From IMG/VR virus record IMGVR_UViG_3300049927_000161, positions 1 to 56,239 of that record: 56,239 nt of DNA. The stretch is one strand, 5' to 3'. How positions within the stretch are numbered: position 1 is the first letter of the stretch; every line of letters starts with the position of its first letter. This document shows positions 3,497 to 56,144 of the stretch, one piece after another. The position numbers and the translations under genes are program-made. The notes under the pieces were generated by a model. It searched no databases. It was not told where the DNA came from and saw only the letters and a program-made list of their open reading frames with translations. This DNA comes from a virus.

Positions 3497-5100
3497 TATT
3501 ATCCAATTTTTTAAATAAAAAAAATATTCCTGCTCAGCAAGAACTCATTCCTGAAGAGAAAAAGGAACTATTGCACATAGAAGACGTTCCAATAACCGCA
3601 ATATTTGAATTTGTTTCCAACGCGGTAAAAGCCACCAAAAACAATGTCAGTGGTATTGAATTCACCAATATTAGCGGCGTTCCTTATTACCTGTTGCGTG
3701 AAAAAATGCGCCGCATGTACCAGACCAATCTTTTTGTCACCATGTTGATTGATGGCATGGTCACAAACATTATCAACAAAGGTCTGCAAGTTGAATGTTC
3801 GCCAGATCAGAATGTCTTGAAATTAAAAAAGGCTGAGAATTACTTCAATGAGTGGAAATTAAAAACAGAATCTTATTATGAATTGTGGTCGGGTAGTCAA
3901 ATGCCAGACCAACAAGGCATAAAAGCCTTGGGCGAATTAGAACAAACTATTTTTAGAGAAGCATTAATAGAAGGCGACGTTCTTTATATCAATAGAGCGG
4001 ACAAAAAAACTGGGCTTCCAAAAATCGATATTATCAATGCCAGACGTGTAGGATCCATATTGACGGTGGCTCCTTTAAGTAACAATAAAATTATTGACGG
4101 CGTAGAGATTAATTCCTACGGCGAACAAGTGGCTTACTGGGTACAACAGGACGATGATTTTTATGCGCTTACAGAACCAGTAAGAATTGCTCGTTTTGGA
4201 GAAAAAACTGGCCGCCAAATGGCAGGATTAATTTACTGGGAACCGTTAGCCGCTGGAAAAGTGCGTGGTACGCCGTTTATTGCCTCGATTGTTAAAGAAA
4301 TAGAATACGTTTGTCAGTACACAGATTTTGAGTTGATCGCCGCAAAAATCAATGCCTCACTCGCAATGATGGTGGAAAAAACGCAAAATATTGCAGGTAG
4401 TCAGCCACTGGAAGGCGTTCAAAAACGCATAACAGTACCGACTTCTTCTGTTGCTAGGCCGCCCATCAGCATGATGCCTGGCGGAATGATTATTCATGAA
4501 TTAAATTATGGTGAAAAACCAACAAGCTTTAAAACCGACAGACCTAATGTCAATTTTAAAACCTTTGTGGAATGTATGATAAATTTCTTGTGTGCTGCAA
4601 AGGGTATTCCCCCAGAAATTGTTTTACTTAAATTCGATCAAAATTACAGTGCGAGTCGCCAAGCTACGATTGAGCATGGAATATTTATTGAAAAATATCG
4701 ATCGAGTTTTTCAAACCAATTCAGTTCTAGAATTTTCAAAGAATGGTTTACCGTCAGCGTGTTAATGCACGTGATAGAAGCCGATGGCTATGTGGAAGCC
4801 ATGCGCAAAGAAGATTTTTATACGTTGCTTGCATGGCAAAAAGCGAATTATTTGGGCGTGATCAAACCGCATGTAGATCAATTAAGTGAAGCCAAAGCCG
4901 TCACGGAAAATATTAAGAATGGTTTAACAACCCGTGAAAGAGCCGCCGCCAAATTTAATGGCAGTGACTACAATCAAAACGTGGCAATTCTAAAAAATGA
5001 GAATAAACTGCTAGCAGATGCCAATGAGGACTTGATCGCGGCAGAAAATCCAGTTGCTCCAACGGAATCATCAAACTCAAACAAAGACGAAGGTAAATAA
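3493..5100 (+). CDS. Portal protein, lambda gpB family
   Basis: A 535-residue portal, the dodecameric ring through which DNA is packaged and to which the tail neck binds. Family signs include the conserved N-terminal helix around YYLLREKMRRMY, the stretch RPPISMMPGGMI, and the C-terminal part with KGIPPEIVLLKFDQNYSASR. The start codon overlaps the stop of the gpW-like gene, so the two are translationally coupled. The next gene is the S49-type protease/scaffold, completing the lambda W-B-C order. Confidence 0.92.
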   Translation: MILSNFLNKKNIPAQQELIPEEKKELLHIEDVPITAIFEFVSNAVKATKNNVSGIEFTNISGVPYYLLREKMRRMYQTNLFVTMLIDGMVTNIINKGLQVECSPDQNVLKLKKAENYFNEWKLKTESYYELWSGSQMPDQQGIKALGELEQTIFREALIEGDVLYINRADKKTGLPKIDIINARRVGSILTVAPLSNNKIIDGVEINSYGEQVAYWVQQDDDFYALTEPVRIARFGEKTGRQMAGLIYWEPLAAGKVRGTPFIASIVKEIEYVCQYTDFELIAAKINASLAMMVEKTQNIAGSQPLEGVQKRITVPTSSVARPPISMMPGGMIIHELNYGEKPTSFKTDRPNVNFKTFVECMINFLCAAKGIPPEIVLLKFDQNYSASRQATIEHGIFIEKYRSSFSNQFSSRIFKEWFTVSVLMHVIEADGYVEAMRKEDFYTLLAWQKANYLGVIKPHVDQLSEAKAVTENIKNGLTTRERAAAKFNGSDYNQNVAILKNENKLLADANEDLIAAENPVAPTESSNSNKDEGK

Positions 5101-8123: not shown

Positions 8124-8464
8124 TGCCTGGTGAAATTCGCGCCTTAGCCTTGCAAGACTTGACCCAACTCTTACAGACAGAGTTGGGTCAAACTATGAAT
8201 ATCACCAATATGAGCGGTCTAACCGTTCAATTTATTGGTTTGACGAATGATACTTTTCAAGAAGTTGAAACAAACACGCAACGAGCAATGGGAAGAATTA
8301 CTCAAGTTGTTTTAAAGCAAAGTGATTGCATAGCAGCTTTTGGACAAATTCCAGTGCATGGATACAAAGTCGAATTTGTTGATCTTCCCGGACAGACATT
8401 TACTGTAAAATCTTATCGCAAAGACAACACGCTGGGCGTGGCAATTTTAGACGTAGGATTATAA
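8123..8464 (+). CDS. Putative head-tail joining / head completion protein
   Basis: A 113-residue protein with a helical first third and a strand-rich second half ending in GQTFTVKSYRKDNTLGVAILD, a pattern common in small head-completion (neck) proteins. Start and stop overlap the neighbours (TAATG on both sides). It sits in the slot of lambda FII or a tail-completion protein. Function is inferred from position. Confidence 0.5.
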   Translation: MPGEIRALALQDLTQLLQTELGQTMNITNMSGLTVQFIGLTNDTFQEVETNTQRAMGRITQVVLKQSDCIAAFGQIPVHGYKVEFVDLPGQTFTVKSYRKDNTLGVAILDVGL

Positions 8465-9138
8465 TGGATCAGACTCTACCGTTACTACAACATTCCACTT
8501 TTGAAAATATTTTAGTTCAAATTAATGATATTTTAGTAGCAGAAGAAACCAATCAAGAAGCTCAAGCAGAATTACTCTCTTTAAATCCAGCCGATTTTTC
8601 TTGGCAAAATCGCATGGAAGACTTCCTCATAATTGAGACAGAAACTGAACTTGAAATACCGATCGTTAATGTTTGGTTCAATAATTCTTCTTTTGAGACA
8701 ATTAACAATGGAACAAACATTAATTGTGTTGGAACATATTATATTGACGTCTATTCAGAAGCTCTAACTCCTGAAGATTATTCTCAAATTGGTTTAACTG
8801 CATCCAGTTCTATCAATAATAGAGTGGTTAGACAAATAATTGGAATTTTAATGTCTCCAAAATATTACAAATTAGGTTTTCCGCTTGGGAAAGATGTAGA
8901 TGGGAATTTATATCCAAATTTTATTAAGAAAAGATATATTGAAGACATTACAAAATTTATTCCAGAAAATTCTCCATCAACCACTAACAATACAATTTCA
9001 ACGCGTGTAATATTCAAGGTTGAATTTGTCGAATTAATTAACGATTTAAACGGAGACGCATTGACGTCTGTTTTATCGAATTTGAATACAGAAACTAGCA
9101 GTGAAAACTTAGACGGTGTTTTAGTTAATACGGGGTAA
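8464..9138 (+). CDS. Putative tail terminator / tail completion protein
   Basis: A 224-residue protein immediately before the sheath gene, the normal position of the tail terminator that caps the sheath and tube. It has alternating strands, including IPIVNVWFNNSSFE and TYYIDVYSEA, that resemble the gpU/Mu terminator style. Its start overlaps the previous stop. Only position and general composition support the call. Confidence 0.5.
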   Translation: MDQTLPLLQHSTFENILVQINDILVAEETNQEAQAELLSLNPADFSWQNRMEDFLIIETETELEIPIVNVWFNNSSFETINNGTNINCVGTYYIDVYSEALTPEDYSQIGLTASSSINNRVVRQIIGILMSPKYYKLGFPLGKDVDGNLYPNFIKKRYIEDITKFIPENSPSTTNNTISTRVIFKVEFVELINDLNGDALTSVLSNLNTETSSENLDGVLVNTG

Positions 9139-9141
9139 ATC

Positions 9142-10617
9142 ATGGGAATATCACAAGCAATACCACAAGGCTCTATTGCGAGCGGCACAGGCATTAGTTT
9201 TAAGAACGCGCAATTGCGAGTTCAGTCTCCTTTATTGCCGCAACGTGTTGCAGTTCTTGCGAGCGCAAAAACTGGCGTTACCGGATTTACTGATAATGCA
9301 CGCGTTGAAATTTTAAGCATTAAAGACGCTGGTGACACATTCGGTTATGGTAGTCCAATTCACACTATTTGTAGAATTCTTTTTAATCCTCAGCAAAATG
9401 TTGGAACGATTCCTGTTGACGTTTATCCTGTTCCTGCAGGAGCGGATGCTGTTGCGGCAACTGGTTCCATTGCATTTTCTGGCACACAAACAGCTACACA
9501 GCAATATGTTCTTTGTATTGGTAGTGAAGTTTTCACTTTTACTTTGACAGAAGGCACGACTGCCTCAGCCGCAGCAACTCAAGTAAAAAATATGCTGGAC
9601 AGCAATGTTAATTTATTGGTTACGACTGATGACATTGACACTGGATCAATTCCCCTTACTGCTAATTGGGAAGGCTTAACTTCAAACGACATCGGCATTA
9701 GCTTATTTGGAGCCTCTGCAGGAATAACAATTACGATTACCGATATGTCGGGCGGAGACATTGATGCAAATTTAACTGGAGCGTTAGCAAATTTTGGCGA
9801 AGTTCATGAAACAATTGTTGTTAATCAATTTTATGATGCTAGCAATTTAACAAAGTTGATCAATACCAACGAGACATTATGGCAAGCCATTGTGGGTCAA
9901 CCGTTCTATGCGATCTATGGAAGTTTTGAAACCGATCCTACGACTGTCAGTTCTGAAACCGATACAGCAAAAAATGACAGAACCAATTGCAAGTTTCCGG
10001 TTCCTGGCTCTACTAGTGCGCCGTTTGAAATTGCGGCAAGTCTTGCGGCATTAACTGCAATCACTTCCAACAATGATCCTGCCAAACCTTATTACGGCGG
10101 CGTTGTCTATGGCATTGTTCCTGGCTTGGCTCAAGACCAATGGGAATATGCTGAAAGAGATTATATTGAAAAACGCGGTTGCAGTACGAGCTATCTAGAT
10201 AATGGCCAAGTAAAAGTAGGGGACGCATTAACAACGTACCATCCTGCAGGAGTTGACGCGCCTGGATATCGTTACGTTGTCGACATTGCAAAGTCTCAAT
10301 ACATTTTAAACGACTTGCGCACATTATTTGACGGTGACGAATGGAACCAAAAGATTTTAGTTGGTGACAATGATCAAGCGACCAATCCTAATGCACGCAA
10401 GCCCTCTGCAGCTAAAGCAGCAATTCTTGCGCGTGTAGATGATTGGGAAACTAAGGCAATTATTGTTGACGCGGATTATACTCGCAAAAATACACGCGTA
10501 GAAATCGATCCAAGCAATAACAATCGATTAAATTCTGTGATTCCTACTTTTTATAGCGGCGGTGCTAGAATCAAAAGTACCGACTTTTTATTCTCAACCC
10601 AAGTCGGAGGAAATTAA
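9142..10617 (+). CDS. Contractile tail sheath protein, Mu gpL type
   Basis: A 491-residue sheath subunit. The N-terminus (MGISQAIPQGSIASGTGI), the VAATGSIAFSG handle-like domain and the C-terminus with NNNRLNSVIPTFYSGGARI match the Mu L family. A contractile sheath makes this a myovirus. The gene is followed three bases later by the tube gene with a strong GGAGG site, the standard sheath-tube pair. Confidence 0.92.
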   Translation: MGISQAIPQGSIASGTGISFKNAQLRVQSPLLPQRVAVLASAKTGVTGFTDNARVEILSIKDAGDTFGYGSPIHTICRILFNPQQNVGTIPVDVYPVPAGADAVAATGSIAFSGTQTATQQYVLCIGSEVFTFTLTEGTTASAAATQVKNMLDSNVNLLVTTDDIDTGSIPLTANWEGLTSNDIGISLFGASAGITITITDMSGGDIDANLTGALANFGEVHETIVVNQFYDASNLTKLINTNETLWQAIVGQPFYAIYGSFETDPTTVSSETDTAKNDRTNCKFPVPGSTSAPFEIAASLAALTAITSNNDPAKPYYGGVVYGIVPGLAQDQWEYAERDYIEKRGCSTSYLDNGQVKVGDALTTYHPAGVDAPGYRYVVDIAKSQYILNDLRTLFDGDEWNQKILVGDNDQATNPNARKPSAAKAAILARVDDWETKAIIVDADYTRKNTRVEIDPSNNNRLNSVIPTFYSGGARIKSTDFLFSTQVGGN

Positions 10618-34662: not shown

Positions 34663-35330
34663 GCTTTCTGCTCCTTATATTGTTCATCCACAAATTGCAA
34701 AATCGCCAAATAAATGCCTGCATCGTGTGCAGAATCTTTGTGGCCACCCGCCATGAAATTATTCGCGTAACGGCATATTTTGCCAATCGTCCATTCCAAG
34801 AGATGGAGCCGCGTGAAGTCTTCTGAATTTTTTAAAGTTAATCCGTTCGGAAACATAGCAGACATCACATTGCCAACTTTAAAAAATGAATTGCCGTATT
34901 GTTTGTTCTTTTCAGTGTAGGTCTTTTGCATTTCTTTAAGAATGTGCATAGCATTTTTATCTGAATATTGTCCATGTGTATTGTTAGGAATTTCATCAAT
35001 GGTTAATGTGTGCGAATCTTCAGCACCATATTTTTCTAATTCATAACCAGCAAAATTAAATAAATAAATAATACTTATAATTTTTTCGCTTAAAATATCA
35101 TATGTAGTACATTCATGACCTTTTCCATCCACGAATATTTTTTCAATAAATTGCTGATAAACTTCAAAATACCTATCATAAATTGCCATGTCAAAGTCGC
35201 CTATAAATCTTCTTCCCCCAAATTCATCTTTATGCGCACGAATAATAGATCTAATTCTTCTTAAAGACTTTAAATAATATTCTATAGGAACTATAACGTG
35301 ATCAAATTTTACATGTGTTATTCCATTCAT
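34659..35330 (-). CDS. NTP-pyrophosphatase-like protein (DUF1599/MazG-like C-terminal domain)
   Basis: A 223-residue, helical protein. The C-terminal 100 residues (EMQKTYTEKNKQYGNSF, RLHLLEWTIGKICRYAN, DSAHDAGIYLAIL) match the all-alpha nucleotide-modification-associated/MazG-like fold, with acidic and lysine residues at expected spots. These domains hydrolyse or bind modified nucleotides in phages with altered DNA. The N-terminal 100 residues are unassigned. Its start overlaps the SDR stop as TAATG. Confidence 0.65.
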   Translation of the reverse strand: MNGITHVKFDHVIVPIEYYLKSLRRIRSIIRAHKDEFGGRRFIGDFDMAIYDRYFEVYQQFIEKIFVDGKGHECTTYDILSEKIISIIYLFNFAGYELEKYGAEDSHTLTIDEIPNNTHGQYSDKNAMHILKEMQKTYTEKNKQYGNSFFKVGNVMSAMFPNGLTLKNSEDFTRLHLLEWTIGKICRYANNFMAGGHKDSAHDAGIYLAILQFVDEQYKEQKA

Positions 35331-36136
35331 TACCGTTGCCCCCCTGCTAAATCAATACAAGAACCGCTTAAGTATTTACGGTCTTGCATTAACAAATCAA
35401 CCACCACTTCTGCAATTTCTTTCTTTGTTAAAAAATTGCCTAGTGGACATTCTGCAGACCAATAAGCTTTAGCTTCCTCATCTGTCAAGTCTCTATAGCG
35501 TTTAAGATCTTGAATGGTTTTTTCTGACATTGGGGAATCTTGTACATTGCTTGGATTAACGCAAAATATTTGGAATCCTTTAGGAGCCAATTCATAAGCC
35601 GCGCATTTTACAAAATGGTTAAGGCCAGCTTTTGCAGCGCAATAAACAGATGAACCATTAAGAACATTTTTATAGGCCATGCTACCAATAAAGACTATTT
35701 TTTTCCAAGAATTTTTTTCATTAAAGTTCTTACAAGCAATGCTCTTTCTTACTATCCAATTTAAAGAAATAATATTAGCAATTAAATTCTTGTTAATAAT
35801 TTCTATAACTCTTTTATCAGTAAGATTTTCTATCCAATCAAGGTGAGTATAACCATTATTAAATACAAAATAGTCAAAGTCTTGGAAGTTGCTTCCATTG
35901 TCACAACCTTTAATAACTTCTCTTTCTTCTGTCTTTAATAAGTCCCATTCTTCCTCAGTAAAAAATTGAACTCTTTTATTTTTATTAACTAATTCTTGAG
36001 CAATTCCATGTCCAATATTATTTTTTTGATAACCAAAAATAGCAGTTCTTGGGGATTCATTTTCAATAATATTTTTTAATAAAGCCTCATGATTATTTTT
36101 TAAATATTCTTTATGTATCTGCCCTTTCGTTCTCAT
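35330..36136 (-). CDS. Short-chain dehydrogenase/reductase (SDR)
   Basis: A 268-residue Rossmann enzyme from ATG 36136 (GGAGAG site). It has a variant cofactor loop FGYQKNNIGHGIA (34-46), NNG at 93-95, the catalytic Ser152 in GSMA, and YCAAK with Tyr165 and Lys169, then NPSNV and a C-terminal SGSCIDLAGGQR as in classical SDRs. SDRs are rare in phages. Coupling to an NTP-pyrophosphatase-like gene, an HAD phosphatase and ThyX suggests nucleotide or nucleotide-sugar chemistry rather than general metabolism. The substrate cannot be read from sequence. Confidence 0.85.
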   Translation of the reverse strand: MRTKGQIHKEYLKNNHEALLKNIIENESPRTAIFGYQKNNIGHGIAQELVNKNKRVQFFTEEEWDLLKTEEREVIKGCDNGSNFQDFDYFVFNNGYTHLDWIENLTDKRVIEIINKNLIANIISLNWIVRKSIACKNFNEKNSWKKIVFIGSMAYKNVLNGSSVYCAAKAGLNHFVKCAAYELAPKGFQIFCVNPSNVQDSPMSEKTIQDLKRYRDLTDEEAKAYWSAECPLGNFLTKKEIAEVVVDLLMQDRKYLSGSCIDLAGGQR

Positions 36137-36137
36137 T

Positions 36138-36623
36138 TTAATACTCTCCTTTTTGACACTGTAAACACGTAATACCGTTGCGACGCCACATTTCAACGAC
36201 TTGATCGCGGTCTTCTACGGCAAATTTAATATTGTAGAATTGATTTAAGTTTTGAAGAATTTCTTCTTTGACTATGTAGTCTGGCCGATGGTCTCCTGTC
36301 CTTCTCATGCGCAACGGATACACGTAAGGAATTCCAATGTGCAAGTCAAGCCAGTCCTTAGTGACAATTCTCCATTTTTCTTCTCGACCCGTCACAATAA
36401 CAATTAAATATTTATAAGAGAAAATTTTTAATAAATCTATTATGTCTTTTTTGGGAATATCACCAACACACAAACTATTAAAATCATCATAATTTTTTTG
36501 CTCACCAGTAACATAGTGCAGTCTATGGGTTATGTCTGCTAGCGTTCCGTCTATATCAAAAATAACGGCGTCCTTTTTATTTACCGTTCTACTCAATAGA
36601 TTTAATTCAACTACATTACTCAT
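36138..36623 (-). CDS. HAD-family phosphatase (polynucleotide kinase 3'-phosphatase-like)
   Basis: A 161-residue HAD phosphatase with the nucleophile motif FDIDGTLAD (D23, D25), the IVTGREEKWR motif and a C-terminal VEDRDQVVEMWRRNG stretch that closely resembles the phosphatase half of T4 polynucleotide kinase. No kinase domain is attached. It may remove phosphate from nucleotides or DNA ends. The ATG at 36623 has AGAAGGA 9 bases upstream and overlaps the ThyX stop. Confidence 0.85.
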   Translation of the reverse strand: MSNVVELNLLSRTVNKKDAVIFDIDGTLADITHRLHYVTGEQKNYDDFNSLCVGDIPKKDIIDLLKIFSYKYLIVIVTGREEKWRIVTKDWLDLHIGIPYVYPLRMRRTGDHRPDYIVKEEILQNLNQFYNIKFAVEDRDQVVEMWRRNGITCLQCQKGEY

Positions 36624-37350
36624 AAGATAAGTCCTTCTTAATTCTGTCAATAAATTTCATGATATTAATAAAATCATCATGATCCATTAGTTCTTTTTCT
36701 ATTAATAAAACAAAATGATTAACAAGTAATTCAAAATCTTTGTAGTCTGGCTTTAAAAACAATTCTGTCCACGGATGAACTTCTATCACGCACGCAATCA
36801 TTTTTTCGACTACGCCGCGATATTCTTCCTGTGTGCGCCAGCCAGTTCTTGCGCGGGCAATTTCGGCTAAGGTTCGCAAATTGAATTGAGCGACGATGTT
36901 TGTATGGATATTGGTGGGGAGTACGCCGCGTGCGTCTTCTGTTTTAATGCCAAGCTTTAATAAGGTATTATAATATTCTTGAATTTGTTCCATACAATGC
37001 TCATACATTGCCTTGGCTGTTGTGTCTTTCTCAATTTCGGGTGGCGTGTGGTAAGTAAACTTTTCCATATTAACCATGCGCATTGTCTGTTGCGCAAAAC
37101 TGCCATGCCTGTTGCGGACAAACTGGTGAGTGAATCCCCTGCTGACGTCTTCAATTAAAAACGTATAACTGACAAACTCCCAACTGCTTGGAATGGTTTT
37201 AGCCATGTATTCTAGTTCTTTTAATTTGTCCTCACGTGGCATTTCAAAAACTTTTTCTAATTCTGCAGCCGTTAGGTTTAGCCGCGTATTTTTAGTCATT
37301 ATCAATTTTTCCATAGCACATTTTGTACTATCAATCAAACTTACTTTCAT
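36616..37350 (-). CDS. ThyX-like flavin-dependent thymidylate synthase (divergent motif)
   Basis: A 244-residue ThyX relative. The signature aligns as RNRHGSFAQQTMRM (79-92) against the classic RHRxxSxxxxSxRY: both arginines and the serine remain, but the second His is Asn, the later Ser is Thr and the final Tyr is Met. The C-terminal NLRTLAEIARAR and RTQEEYR carry the usual substrate arginines. It would make dTMP, or a modified pyrimidine, from dUMP with flavin and folate. It is followed by the HAD gene and preceded by an FAD oxidoreductase. Confidence 0.85.
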   Translation of the reverse strand: MKVSLIDSTKCAMEKLIMTKNTRLNLTAAELEKVFEMPREDKLKELEYMAKTIPSSWEFVSYTFLIEDVSRGFTHQFVRNRHGSFAQQTMRMVNMEKFTYHTPPEIEKDTTAKAMYEHCMEQIQEYYNTLLKLGIKTEDARGVLPTNIHTNIVAQFNLRTLAEIARARTGWRTQEEYRGVVEKMIACVIEVHPWTELFLKPDYKDFELLVNHFVLLIEKELMDHDDFINIMKFIDRIKKDLSYE

Positions 37351-50770: not shown

Positions 50771-51010
50771 TTATTTCGTTAAAACCTTAAGATCTCTTTG
50801 CTGAGCAAGCCATATCACGTCCAGCAAGCATTCAATGGGAATAATATGTGTAGTGGTGTTACGCTGCTTTTCCTTTTTTGAATGCTCTTGTTCAGCTTCT
50901 TTTGTGAGGAACTTATGGGTGGCTTCATATAAATCACACGTGTTTTTTATTTTTGTATATGTCCACATAAAGCCTTTTTTCTCATTCATTATTTTAACGG
51001 ATTTATACAT
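50771..51010 (-). CDS. WTYT-domain small protein, paralogue of 51003 C-terminus
   Basis: A 79-residue protein from ATG 51010 (AAGGAGCAAACA site): MYKSVKIMNEKKGFMWTYTK and DLYEATHKFLTKEAE. It aligns with KSMKIFRIV..WTYTQY..DLYEETHEWLCEQ in the last 85 residues of the gene behind it. The two are neighbours, so this looks like a duplication of the C-terminal domain. Function unknown. Confidence 0.65.
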   Translation of the reverse strand: MYKSVKIMNEKKGFMWTYTKIKNTCDLYEATHKFLTKEAEQEHSKKEKQRNTTTHIIPIECLLDVIWLAQQRDLKVLTK

Positions 51011-52154
51011 TGTTTGCTCCTTGTTGAACTTCATAGCCGCTTGCGTGCGCATTATCAATAAGTATTCTTAGTTCTTCACTTGTAACGTGTTCACTTGCAA
51101 ACACCCACTTGTCCTCAGAAACTTTTTCTTCAAACTCTGCCTTCTTTTGCTCACACAGCCACTCATGCGTTTCTTCATAAAGATCTTCACTGTATTGCGT
51201 ATATGTCCACGCGTCGCCACAATCTTCTCTGACGATTCTAAAAATTTTCATTGACTTTTTAATGTATTTTTCAACGTATGTCGCCCTGCCCTTAATCTTT
51301 GGCATATATTTAAGGGGAAAATGGTTAATCATTTCATAGCCTTCAACAATACAACCAACTTTAGGCTCAAATCTAGATTTTATCCACACAGTGTGCTGGT
51401 CTTCTAGCCGGACATGATAAATTGAATATCGTTTATTAACTCGGCGTGCTAAAAATTTGGAAGTCCGTGCGCGTTTCTTGAAGGAAATTATGTCTTCTTC
51501 GTTCATGATTGATTCATACTCAATTATTTTTACTTCAAAATCACTATCTTTGACAATATCAATCAACTGCTGAGAAACTTTAAGCCGAAAAACAGCTCCT
51601 TCTCTGACTTCTGTTGACCAGTTTTTCATTGAGCCGCCGCTCGTTACTTTGCCGCTTAACAGAGCAACGTCTTCACACACTTTTGCGCCAGAATCACGGC
51701 CAAAGGCGCGAGCCAGTGGATAACCTGCAAACGTGACCGCGTCCTTGCCCGTGTAAGTATTTTTAGTCGCAATCAGGTCAACTGTTCTGACGTTTGAATT
51801 GTATTTAAAGTCCAATTCTTCAACCGCGTCTTCAACTATTTTGGGGAAAACCCACACTTTTGCATCAGCGTCCCAACGACCGCCAAGGTTTTGACAAGAA
51901 GCAACAAGCCACTCATTGTATCTATGCTTAAGCGTAACAACGCCTTGATCTTTGACTTCAGACTCTAATTCATAGATAACATCAACGCCGTATTTGGATC
52001 TTACTGAAATATCATTAACAAGGAGTTCTTGTTCGCCTAACGACAAATTTTCGCTTTTTGGAGTGACTTTGAGTTTGACTTCATAACCCTGTTCGTTTGT
52101 GCATTTAAAATAAACGCGGTTCTTTTTGATGACGTTTAATTTGAGAGTTTTCAT
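51003..52154 (-). CDS. Large accessory protein with GGRWDADAKVWVFP motif and C-terminal WTYT domain
   Basis: A 383-residue protein, the largest of the accessory region. N-terminal part contains SCQNLGGRWDADAKVWVFP, which resembles the HARP-domain signature (LGGRW..xxK.WVFP) of annealing helicases, suggesting nucleic-acid binding. A middle part has GYPLARAFGRDSGAKV and IYHVRLEDQHTVWIKSR. The C-terminal WTYT/DLYEETH module is duplicated in the adjacent small gene. It has its own TTGCAA promoter and an AAAGGATATAAAG leader. The HARP parallel is only a motif match. Confidence 0.6.
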   Translation of the reverse strand: MKTLKLNVIKKNRVYFKCTNEQGYEVKLKVTPKSENLSLGEQELLVNDISVRSKYGVDVIYELESEVKDQGVVTLKHRYNEWLVASCQNLGGRWDADAKVWVFPKIVEDAVEELDFKYNSNVRTVDLIATKNTYTGKDAVTFAGYPLARAFGRDSGAKVCEDVALLSGKVTSGGSMKNWSTEVREGAVFRLKVSQQLIDIVKDSDFEVKIIEYESIMNEEDIISFKKRARTSKFLARRVNKRYSIYHVRLEDQHTVWIKSRFEPKVGCIVEGYEMINHFPLKYMPKIKGRATYVEKYIKKSMKIFRIVREDCGDAWTYTQYSEDLYEETHEWLCEQKKAEFEEKVSEDKWVFASEHVTSEELRILIDNAHASGYEVQQGANNV

Positions 52155-52261: not shown

Positions 52262-52392
52262 GGTAGTAGGCAAGATTTTACTTGCTAGGAATGCGTTACA
52301 ACGGCTGTCGTGTGGGGCGACCGTATCATTCCGAGTTATAGCTCTCCACTTGAAACATTTCCACCTGCGTTTCTATCAACGCCGCTACTACC
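52262..52392 (-). ncRNA. Structured RNA candidate 1 (cloverleaf-like)
   Basis: An 8-bp closing helix (GGTAGTAG/CTACTACC) encloses about 115 bases. Inside on the minus strand are a GCGTT/AACGC hairpin after the first strand, a long arm GGAATG/CATTCC with an inner GTCG/CGAC, and a GCAAG/CTTGC hairpin (6-base loop) immediately before the closing helix. The layout mimics acceptor, D arm, variable/anticodon arm and T arm, but the size (131) and loops do not fit a normal tRNA. Pairing was read by eye. Confidence 0.45.
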
Positions 52393-52406
52393 ATAAATTG
52401 CCTTTT

Positions 52407-52509
52407 GCTTTAACGTGCAAGTTTGTATGATTGCGCATCATGGTGGAAAAATTCGGCTAGCTCCAATTACTCAAGGAGAAAGGCTACCTACACCGCCCAA
52501 CGCTAAAGC
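52407..52509 (-). ncRNA. Structured RNA candidate 2
   Basis: A 10-bp closing helix GCTTTAGCGT / ACGTTAAAGC (one G-T pair) surrounds 83 bases. Inside on the minus strand are GGTG/CACC, GGTAGC/GCTAGCC with one bulge and CTCC/GGAG in series, then a separate ATGAT/ATCAT hairpin. It lies 14 bases from candidate 1. Confidence 0.4.
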
Positions 52510-52540
52510 CATATAAAAATATTGTTCCTTATCAATGTTC

Positions 52541-52718
52541 TTATTGAGTAACAACAAGTGGAATCAAACCACATTGCGCCTCATAACCTCTACGGTAAAG
52601 CATCACCCTTGTGGGCTACCAACAGCCAGCTTTTCGCTTAGTCGGGTCACGGGATTAGACCTGCAATCCTACCGACACTGCCTGACTTACTCACAGTCAC
52701 GTTGTTGCCACTCAATAA
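52541..52718 (-). ncRNA. Structured RNA candidate 3 (cloverleaf-like, enlarged)
   Basis: A composite closing stem: 9 bp (TTATTGAGT/ACTCAATAA), a 2x2 internal loop and 6 bp (CAACAA/TTGTTG). Internal minus-strand hairpins include TGAC/GTCA, GGATT/AATCC (8-base loop), GGCT/AGCC, and GTGG-TTTGATT-CCAC just before the closing helix, a seven-base T-loop-like hairpin. The element ends three bases from the stop of the gene at 52721. Cloverleaf topology with a long insertion between anticodon-like and T-like arms. Confidence 0.45.
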
Positions 52719-52720
52719 GA

Positions 52721-52936
52721 TCACTCAATCGTTGCTTGATCTTTTAAAAATTTCTCACAATATTTCATTAGTTTACTTAAAACTTCATCGGACAGATAGA
52801 TAACTTCTGGATCGGCTTCTTCAAAAGTATCCGTCGACAATACCATGTGAAAAGAATCGCAATCATAATAAATATTTACGTCTTCCCCAAGAAATTCCTT
52901 TTTAGAGTATATTTCTTTAAATTCTTGACGGTTCAT
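52721..52936 (-). CDS. Hypothetical acidic protein between RNA elements
   Basis: A 71-residue acidic protein, MNRQEFKEIYSKKEFLGEDV then YYDCDSFHMVLSTDTFEEAD and a helical end. TAGGAGCAAACA precedes the ATG. It is flanked on both sides by structured RNA candidates, with the candidate-3 stem starting right after its stop. No family recognised. Confidence 0.58.
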   Translation of the reverse strand: MNRQEFKEIYSKKEFLGEDVNIYYDCDSFHMVLSTDTFEEADPEVIYLSDEVLSKLMKYCEKFLKDQATIE

Positions 52937-52961
52937 TGTTTGCTCCTATTCAATAATCATA

Positions 52962-53105
52962 GCGCGTTCCGTCCCCGGATCGAACGGGTCTCTCCTGTCG
53001 GTCAGGTGAAGTTAAGTTTTTCAAACGGCGCGTCCGCCAATTTACTCACGCTTAACTGATCCAGTAATTAACTGGCACTGTTTCCACTACACCACCGGAA
53101 CGCGC
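52962..53105 (-). ncRNA. Structured RNA candidate 4 (tRNA-like with long insertion)
   Basis: A 10-bp GC-rich closing helix (GCGCGTTCCG/CGGAACGCGC) with a canonical-looking T arm immediately inside its 3' strand (ACCCG-TTCGATC-CGGGG; plus positions 52973-52989). Also present are an arm CCAG-TTAATTA-CTGG (53061-53075) in the anticodon position, GGTG..TGCC as a weak D arm, a CCTG-ACCGA-CAGG variable-arm-like hairpin and an extra TTAAG/CTTAA stem. The middle insertion of about 60 bases makes it 144 bases. If charged at all, the 7-base loop would give anticodon AAT with an unusual T37. The best tRNA-like of the four. Confidence 0.5.
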
Positions 53106-53110
53106 GATGG

Positions 53111-53665
53111 TTACTTAAATAAATGGTATATTTCAGTCCTTATTTTTTTTAGTTCAGATTCTATTGCGCCTAATGATGCCCTTTCGTCCATGGATAAATC
53201 AAGCGGAGTACTCATTCTTGGGCTAGCAGCAATAATCTTATATCCGTGAATATCAAGTTCTTGTATCTTTTTCATTAGCGCAATGTAGCGTTCTGCACGC
53301 TCGCCCAACTCTGGCATGACGTCCTCATTTTTAAGCCAAAAGCTGACGTGGCAAAAACGCCAACTGACACACAGAATCTCGGCTTGCTCGGGCGTTACTT
53401 TACACAGCGTTTTAAAGCGTAGGTCACACGCCTTATTATAATCTTTAAAGGCTTCAACGTCGCCCATCATGTGCAATACGCCACCACCAAACATTTTAAC
53501 GGTACGCGGCACGGTCATTTTTAACTTTTCAGCGTAGGGCTTTATAAAGAATTTATGGAGTTCTTCGCGGCGTGGGTAAGGCGTGCCTGTGCTTGCGTCT
53601 ACCCATACGCCTTCTTGCTTTTGTGGGTCTTCGGCTTTTAAAAACCAGTCTACGAAGTTTTTCAT
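53111..53665 (-). CDS. Hypothetical protein
   Basis: A 184-residue mostly helical protein, MKNFVDWFLKAEDPQKQEGV, with EVTPEQAEILCVSWRF-type helices (actual KVTPEQAEILCVSWRFCHVS) and a C-terminal MDERASLGAIESELKKIR. AAGGAACCAGC precedes the ATG. Transcribed toward RNA candidate 4, which starts six bases after its stop. No family recognised. Confidence 0.6.
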   Translation of the reverse strand: MKNFVDWFLKAEDPQKQEGVWVDASTGTPYPRREELHKFFIKPYAEKLKMTVPRTVKMFGGGVLHMMGDVEAFKDYNKACDLRFKTLCKVTPEQAEILCVSWRFCHVSFWLKNEDVMPELGERAERYIALMKKIQELDIHGYKIIAASPRMSTPLDLSMDERASLGAIESELKKIRTEIYHLFK

Positions 53666-55385: not shown

Positions 55386-55485
55386 TGCCTCACTTGCCTC
55401 ACTCTGCCTCACTTGTACAAAAAATATCAGGCAAAAAAACTGTAGTAGAAACAAGGATGCCTCACTTGCCTCACTTGCCTCACTT
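55386..55485 (+). repeat. Iteron cluster, forward: six TGCCTCACT copies
   Basis: Copies at 55386, 55395, 55405, 55458, 55467 and 55476, grouped as three plus three, with 9-10 bp steps within a group, about one helical turn. The second triplet is preceded by GTAGTAGAAACAAGGA, which reappears inverted beside the reverse cluster. Confidence 0.85.
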
Positions 55486-55490
55486 ATTTT

Positions 55491-55518
55491 TTAATAATAA
55501 TAATAATAATAATAATAA
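55491..55518. repeat. AAT trinucleotide tract
   Basis: About nine uninterrupted TAA/AAT units directly after the forward iteron cluster, followed by a purine-rich AAAGGAAGGAG. An easily melted tract between the iteron arms. Confidence 0.8.
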
Positions 55519-55562
55519 AGGAAGGAGTGTGGTGTGGCTGGCTAACGCTTCCCCTGTGTGAG

Positions 55563-55580
55563 TGTGAGGCATGAGGCATG
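55563..55580 (-). repeat. Two degenerate iterons in the array centre
   Basis: GTGAGGCA and TGAGGCAT in tandem. They fit the iteron core on the reverse strand but lack the AAGT lead. Confidence 0.5.
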
Positions 55581-55617
55581 ACGACGTGGCTCTTCCTGGG
55601 CGATAACCCAAAAAGGG

Positions 55618-55706
55618 GTGAGGCAAGTGAGGCAAGTGAGGCACCGTTGTTTCTACTGAAGTTTTTTCGAGGTCGAAGTGAGGCAAGTAGTGAGGCAAGT
55701 GAGGCA
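55618..55706 (-). repeat. Iteron cluster, reverse: six GTGAGGCA copies
   Basis: Copies at 55618, 55627, 55636, 55678, 55690 and 55699, again three plus three, mirror-imaging the forward cluster. The inner triplet is followed by CCGTTGTTTCTACT, the inverse of the forward flank. The whole 55386-55706 segment is therefore a large imperfect inverted repeat. Confidence 0.85.
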
Positions 55707-55738: not shown

Positions 55739-55761
55739 CTCAATAACAAGGCGTTATTGAG
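55739..55761. repeat. Hairpin CTCAATAAC-AAGGC-GTTATTGAG
   Basis: Perfect 9-bp stem with a 5-base loop beside the reverse iterons. The same TTATTGAGT word forms the closing helix of RNA candidate 3. Confidence 0.65.
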
Positions 55762-56144
55762 TAAGACAATACTACAACAAGTATTTATTTAACACAAATA
55801 GTAATATTTATTTTACATTTAAGTGCAATATTCTCCTTATAAACTATTTACTTCTACGTATGTATGTGCTAGCTATAACAAATAGAACATTAATAATACA
55901 AATATAGTGCATTAATAATACAATTGTACATAAATAATATATATATATAGTATATCAAATGTACAATATGTACATATAATAAACTAGAGCACACTTTTAA
56001 TCATATTGCAATACACAAATAATATACATATGACACAATAATATACACATGAAAGAATAATACACTATCTACAACACGTTAAATTTGTCCTACATTAAGC
56101 GATAATTTTAGACGTAAAAAAATATAGAAGACACAGAGATCGTT

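What the first reader, a model, noticed from the sequence alone, without database searches (positions are those of the whole stretch)
52262..53105. Array of four cloverleaf-like structured RNAs of abnormal size
Four consecutive elements (131, 103, 178 and 144 bases) each have an 8-17 bp closing helix. Elements 1, 3 and 4 place a T-arm-like hairpin immediately inside the 3' strand of that helix; element 4 has an orthodox TTCGATC loop. Yet all contain long insertions and do not fold as standard tRNAs by eye. They could be tRNAs with giant variable arms or introns, decayed tRNAs, or a new class of tRNA-mimicking phage RNAs that resist or titrate host tRNA-processing or tRNA-cleaving defence enzymes.
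Basis: partly seen in the sequence, partly recalled or inferred. Interest (0 to 1): 0.75.

Follow-up and report, generated by a model that had tools for sequence, protein, structure and literature searches.

The report
Oversized tRNA-like RNA genes in a phage
Two of the four reported phage RNA elements are real oversized tRNA look-alikes, one of them almost a complete tRNA with a giant extra arm, and a survey shows that enlarged phage tRNA genes which standard gene finders miss are common in virus sequences.

Summary
Observation partly confirmed. Of four elements (minus strand), E4 (53105-52962) and E3 (52720-52539) are real; E1 and E2 cannot be told from chance. E4 has a 10-bp closing helix, a tRNA D-arm (AGUGGAA loop), a 4-bp/7-nt anticodon-like arm and a UUCGAUC T-arm, with 71 nt where a variable loop of 4-21 nt belongs. 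That combination occurs 0 times at this strength in 40 shuffled windows and nowhere else in 1.28 Mb of other viral DNA. E3 has a 19-bp closing helix (z = -4.3) stacked on a T-arm with loop UUUGAUU, but no canonical D-arm. Neither is a standard tRNA (ARAGORN and Rfam tRNA negative). No homologue was found, so covariation could not be tested. A D-loop/T-loop spacing scan of IMG/VR found 17 oversized tRNA genes among 80 hits (0.8 expected) and over 30 in 0.73 Mb. Some score 43-55 bits with Rfam tRNA, ARAGORN reports none of those checked, and many carry a covarying hairpin followed by ACAGCAA. Unexplained phage tRNA introns are already known from Lak megaphages. Best reading: E4 is a tRNA-derived gene with a giant variable arm, probably not decoding; E3 is a more distant mimic. 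A decoy role is inferred only.

The parts
52962..53105 (-). E4: tRNA-like RNA gene with giant variable region (144 nt)
   Evidence: fits between the stop of ORF 53665-53111 and the ribosome-binding site of ORF 52936-52721
53096..53105 (-). E4 closing helix, 5' strand GCGCGTTCCG (7-bp acceptor equivalent plus 3 bp)
   Evidence: sequence; pairs with 52971-52962, 10 WC pairs
52962..52971 (-). E4 closing helix, 3' strand CGGAACGCGC; no encoded CCA follows
   Evidence: sequence
53078..53092 (-). E4 D-arm GTGT-AGTGGAA-ACAG (3 of 4 pairs; A14 G15 U16 G18 G19 A21 present)
   Evidence: sequence
53060..53076 (-). E4 anticodon-like arm GCCAG-TTAATTA-CTGGA (4 bp, 7-nt loop, U33 present, nominal AAU, U37 atypical)
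   Evidence: sequence; in the centroid structure; same layout in a viral tRNA at L235:2039-1963
52989..53059 (-). E4 giant variable region (71 nt): hairpin AGTTAAG...CTTAACT with inner GGCG-GACG-CGCC, then hairpin CCTG-ACCGA-CAGG
52974..52988 (-). E4 T-arm CCCG-TTCGATC-CGGG
52539..52720 (-). E3: 182-nt multibranched RNA with 19-bp closing helix (52720-52702 with 52557-52539)
52558..52572 (-). E3 T-arm-like hairpin GTGG-TTTGATT-CCAC, stacked directly on the closing helix
52261..52393 (-). E1: weak candidate (9-bp closing helix; 6-nt-loop hairpin GCAAG-TAAAAT-CTTGC)
   Evidence: z = -1.73; closing helix at chance level
52407..52509 (-). E2: not supported as a structured element
   Evidence: z = -0.08; closing helix at chance level
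52721..52936 (-). 71-aa ORF between E4 and E3, no family
51003..52154 (-). 383-aa ORF downstream of E1 (phrog_18108, unknown function)
53111..53665 (-). 184-aa ORF upstream of E4, orphan

Best explanation
What it is: E4 is a tRNA-derived RNA gene in a phage operon. It keeps the acceptor/T-arm minihelix, D-arm and an anticodon-like arm, but its variable region has grown to 71 nt with two extra hairpins, and its acceptor helix has grown to 10 bp. E3 is a more derived tRNA mimic that keeps only the T-arm stacked on a very long (19-bp) closing helix. E1 and E2 are not shown to belong. How it most likely works (inferred): both are transcribed with the neighbouring minus-strand genes and released or stabilised through their minihelix, which tRNA-handling enzymes bind. 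They do not decode: there is no CCA, position 37 is U, the acceptor is too long and the size is abnormal. They most likely act as stable tRNA mimics that occupy host tRNA-binding or tRNA-cutting enzymes. Shown: the anatomy. Inferred: transcription, processing and the decoy role (about 0.25).
For: E4 combination unique and above shuffles; helix statistics for E3; fold z-scores; the E4 centroid structure shows the anticodon-like arm, both variable-region hairpins and the T-arm; a viral tRNA called by ARAGORN has the same D-arm and G-A-closed anticodon stem as E4; oversized tRNA genes are common in viral contigs, 17/80 against 0.77 expected, 37 listed against 0 in reversed sequence, including giant-variable-region cases L182 and L196; ARAGORN and Rfam do not see E4 or E3; PNKP-type phosphatase gene in the genome.
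Against: No homologue of E1-E4 in IMG/VR relatives, GenBank phages or plasmids, so no covariation support. The Rfam tRNA model gives nothing at E <= 10. The T-stem has only 4 bp with a mismatched junction, and D-stem pair 10-25 is G-G. Nothing here shows a transcript or a function. E4 can also be read with an anticodon-loop insert.
Confidence: 0.5

Rival explanations
1. Intron-bearing tRNA: E4 is a class II pre-tRNA with a roughly 45-nt insert in its anticodon loop (stem GUUAA/UUAAC, 52-nt loop starting UUACU, variable arm CCUG/CAGG). It is removed after transcription to give a working tRNA, like the unexplained introns of Lak megaphage tRNAs.
For: The alternative parse exists with a 5-bp stem and a 21-nt class II variable arm; anticodon-loop inserts of about 52 nt exist in L158 and L199; phage tRNA introns are reported in PMC6784885; the genome encodes a PNKP-type end-healing enzyme.
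Against: The predicted fold prefers the CCAG/CTGG arm. The conserved insert motif ACAGCAA of other phage tRNAs is absent from E4. No RNA ligase was recognised among the genes scanned. 7-66/49-65 mismatches and a 10-bp acceptor are unlike the intact cases. E3 cannot be read this way.
Confidence: 0.2
2. Decayed tRNA relics: old tRNA genes broken by insertions, now neutral.
For: The tRNA model no longer matches; the D-stem and T-stem of E4 carry mismatches; 23 related phage records have no tRNAs.
Against: Long closing helices (10 and 19 pairs) and low folding energy are gained or kept structure, not decay. The elements sit tightly between genes in a compact genome.
Confidence: 0.2
3. Structured leaders, processing or termination elements of the operon with no tRNA ancestry; the T-arm resemblance is accidental.
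For: All four lie in intergenic gaps of one operon; E1-E3 lack a canonical D-arm; hairpins with long helices are common by chance.
Against: E4 combines several tRNA features at the right spacing. No terminator-like site falls at E3 or E4.
Confidence: 0.1

Closest known systems
Intron-containing tRNAs of Lak megaphages (Devoto et al. 2019, PMC6784885)
   Same: Oversized phage tRNA genes, insert not explained, missed by bacterial-mode gene finders; one intron may itself encode a tRNA
   Different: Lak cases are otherwise ordinary tRNAs with an anticodon; E4 most likely has its extra sequence in the variable region and a longer acceptor; Lak sequences were not compared here
Class II tRNAs (Ser, Leu, Tyr) with a long variable arm
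   Same: Order of arms, hairpin in the variable region
   Different: Their variable region is up to about 21-24 nt (general knowledge); 71 nt with two hairpins in E4
Allo-tRNAs and other non-canonical tRNAs (reviewed in PMC7609411; listed, abstract only)
   Same: Unusual acceptor/T-stem composition and long variable arms
   Different: They have a 12-bp acceptor branch in total; E4 has 10+4 with a mismatched junction, E3 19+4
Pseudo-tRNA tRNA-Other of Bacillus cereus (PMC3399842)
   Same: tRNA-like RNA without a translation role
   Different: It is chromosomal, flanks a genomic island and carries a Trp anticodon; no large insert is described in the passages read
Bacterial Y RNAs (YrlA) with a tRNA-like module
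   Same: tRNA-mimicking domain in a larger RNA (general knowledge)
   Different: No match to any Rfam family at E <= 10 except five chance-level hits, none of them YrlA

Membership tests
Canonical tRNA (RF00005) | Covariance-model match | tested here: not met
   No match at E <= 10 in the window; ARAGORN 0 genes, also with introns allowed
Canonical tRNA (RF00005) | 7-bp acceptor and 5-bp T-stem without linker | tested here: not met
   E4: 10-bp helix, 2-nt junction, 4-bp T-stem; E3: 19 bp plus 4 bp
Canonical tRNA (RF00005) | T-loop UUCRANN | tested here: met
   E4 UUCGAUC meets it; E3 UUUGAUU has lost C56; E1 and E2 do not meet it
Canonical tRNA (RF00005) | D-arm with A14 R15 ... G18 G19 | tested here: met
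   E4 only; not found next to the acceptor helix in E3, E2 or E1
tRNA with intron / oversized phage tRNA | Complete tRNA arms with abnormal D-to-T spacing | tested here: inconclusive
   E4 meets the relaxed descriptor but not the strict one that 37 other viral elements meet
tRNA with intron / oversized phage tRNA | Insert removed in vivo | not testable with these tools
   needs RNA
Phage insert family with hairpin + ACAGCAA | Hairpin followed by ACAGCAA in the enlarged middle | tested here: not met
   Absent from E1-E4 by inspection; present in L156, L171, L175, L185, L186, L224, L231
tmRNA, Y RNA, riboswitches and other Rfam families | Match at the gathering score | tested here: not met
   0 matches; five chance-level matches at E 1-10

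The most novel reading that the evidence does not exclude
E4 and E3 belong to a widespread, largely unannotated class of phage RNAs built on the tRNA minihelix, with large structured inserts in the anticodon loop or variable region. The class includes a family whose insert is a covarying hairpin plus ACAGCAA. They are either a new kind of small tRNA intron or tRNA decoys against host tRNA-targeting defence.
Probability: 0.3. Interest if true: 0.8.

Novelty: new variant of a known kind. Interest (0 to 1): 0.5.

Why it matters
Phage tRNAs are counted and interpreted (codon supply, evasion of tRNA-cutting defences) with programs that cannot see these genes. If oversized tRNA-like genes are common, phage tRNA repertoires are miscounted, and a class of small inserts in bacterial virus tRNAs, with no known removal mechanism, becomes directly testable with the listed sequences.

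Tried and rejected
Homologues of the region: blastn in phages and plasmids, neighbour proteins in viral contigs, phages and genome contigs, 27 related virus records: none; the blastn matches in G018 lie in coding sequence. Synteny: the replication module has relatives at up to 57% identity, but the right arm (43-56 kb) has none. ARAGORN with introns and low thresholds: swamped by false calls. In-silico deletion of the E4 insert: ARAGORN calls a tRNA in 238 of 468 deletions but with many different anticodons, so too permissive to use. Shared heptamer UGAGUAA in E2, E3 and E4: 13 in the window against 8.3 expected, so not significant. TTATTGAG at the E3 ends: 5 against 3.5 expected. Extra candidates L041, L043, L044 and L064: inside long reading frames (three over 1,000 aa, one 217 aa), rejected. 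Mobile element with 22-nt inverted repeats (E3): no target-site duplication seen. Dolichospermum phage with the neighbour gene: no tRNA-like element.

Full report
Where it is. The window is a 56,239-base IMG/VR virus record with no named source. It is a contractile-tail phage: terminase, tail sheath and tape measure on the left, whose tail sheath is closest to Vibrio and related phages at up to 38% identity. The replication module holds DNA polymerase III alpha, an exonuclease, a Dda-like helicase, a PNKP-type 3'-phosphatase and Pam3-like genes. The right arm (43-56 kb) consists of small orphan genes, most of them on the minus strand, with no relatives in the records that share the replication module. 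The finding lies in that arm.

What is really there. Reading the minus strand, E4 (53105-52962) fills the gap between two genes, E3 (52720-52539) begins right after the stop codon of a 71-aa ORF, and E2 and E1 fill the next intergenic stretch. ARAGORN and Rfam find nothing. E3 has the strongest structure: a 19-bp closing helix with 17 Watson-Crick pairs, more than any helix in 12 whole-window shuffles, and z = -4.3. A 4-bp hairpin with T-loop UUUGAUU is stacked directly on it. E4 has a perfect 10-bp helix, a T-arm with UUCGAUC, a D-arm with the canonical AGUGGAA loop, and a 4-bp anticodon-like arm with a 7-nt loop and U33. Between that arm and the T-arm lie 71 nt with two hairpins, where a tRNA has 4 to about 21. 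The joint pattern was found only at E4, 0.15 times per shuffled window, never with a 10-bp helix, and in none of 1.28 Mb of other viral loci (the one background hit is L001, a copy of the window itself). E1 (z = -1.7) and E2 (z = -0.1) rest on 9-10-bp helices of a kind that occurs over a hundred times on this strand of the window. I do not count E2, and hold E1 as weak.

Is it a tRNA? Not by the membership tests: no covariance-model match, no 7/5 acceptor-T geometry, no CCA. But the order and spacing of the arms of E4 up to the variable region are those of a tRNA. A scan for its D-arm with the start of the next stem found one viral tRNA (L235:2039-1963), whose anticodon stem begins GCCGG and ends CCGGA against GCCAG and CUGGA in E4, including the odd G-A closing pair. 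The pattern fixed only the D-arm and the GCC; the 3' half of the stem was not selected for. I therefore prefer 'normal anticodon arm plus giant variable region' to 'anticodon-loop insert', but the second parse (GUUAA/UUAAC stem, 52-nt loop, 21-nt variable arm) is possible.

Survey. Since E4 had no homologues, I asked whether oversized tRNAs exist in other viruses. A scan of IMG/VR for a tRNA D-loop and T-loop at a distance that excludes both normal tRNAs and tandem tRNAs gave 80 loci, the listing cap. Seventeen have an acceptor stem of 6 or more WC pairs in the right place and a T-stem of at least 4 bp; partners swapped among the 80 give 0.77 on average, at most 5. A strict three-arm descriptor found 37 oversized elements in these loci (a few overlap or are near-duplicates), none in reversed sequence, and none in the 1.3 Mb of loci fetched earlier, window included. 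Several score 43-55 bits with the Rfam tRNA model. In the 18 loci checked ARAGORN lists mainly ordinary tRNAs and a few odd 'tRNA-???' calls, and not the oversized genes. The inserts are of several kinds. L158 and L199 have 59-nt anticodon loops with an ordinary 4-nt variable loop. L182 and L196 appear by eye to have a normal-sized anticodon arm and a giant variable region. The largest group has a hairpin followed by ACAGCAA or a close variant: 16 inserts, 15 distinct stems, 91 of 96 pair cells standard against 49 for swapped partners. I chose the 6-bp segments by hand, so this control flatters the count, but the variety of intact stems is plain. L185 has two cases with a second T-arm inside the insert. 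Unexplained introns in phage tRNAs, including one that may itself encode a tRNA, were reported for Lak megaphages (PMC6784885); I did not compare sequences. E4 does not carry the ACAGCAA motif, so it is related in kind, not by demonstrated descent.

Mechanism. Most likely E4 is a tRNA-derived gene that no longer decodes: U37, no CCA, an over-long acceptor and a giant variable region. Its best-preserved part, the acceptor/T-arm minihelix, is what RNase P, EF-Tu, CCA-adding and modification enzymes recognise (general knowledge). E3 keeps only that part. A role as a stable mimic that occupies tRNA-handling or tRNA-cutting enzymes is therefore the most natural guess, about 0.25. A PNKP-type phosphatase in the same genome shows at most that this phage deals with broken nucleic-acid ends. 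A spliced tRNA and a relic are each about 0.2.

Limits. No homologues, hence no covariation for E1-E4; no transcript data; one metagenomic contig. The survey used one D-loop/T-loop pair and hit the listing cap, so it gives existence and a lower bound, not a frequency.

Noticed in passing
L155-L234 (e.g. L175:351-470, 8389-8505, 9917-10038; L171:1374-1493; L186:8270-8386; L224:5904-6020; L231:333-447): Over thirty oversized phage tRNA genes (inserts of about 40-110 nt) that ARAGORN misses in the loci checked; a large group shares a covarying hairpin followed by ACAGCAA, not in Rfam. Possibly a new small tRNA intron or insert family.
   Followed up: partly
L158:1024-1146 and 1155-1282; L199:2034-2156: tRNAs with about 50-nt inserts, two in tandem in a 51-kb contig whose only tRNA-model matches are these two; by eye the three inserts share a motif like GGUUAUC.
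   Followed up: partly
L185:6512-6707 and 3716-3871: tRNAs whose insert contains a second T-arm; in 3716-3871 the inner 3' half can also pair with the same 5' half (alternative 3' halves).
   Followed up: no
L002:1206-1273 (G018): 68-nt tRNA-like element with 12-bp acceptor and perfect T-arm but no room for an anticodon arm, flanked by two other long-helix elements, 1.9 kb upstream of a distant homologue of the gene downstream of E1.
   Followed up: partly
window 55440-55700: Repeats of GTGAGGCAA and their inverted copies give a 28-bp helix; together with the AT-rich end at 55750-56100 this looks like a replication or regulatory region.
   Followed up: no
window 36138-36650: PNKP-type 3'-phosphatase domain gene; no RNA ligase recognised among the genes scanned.
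   Followed up: partly
window 35330-36196: Short-chain dehydrogenase-like gene inside the replication module; one distant match (25%) among the replication-module relatives.
   Followed up: no
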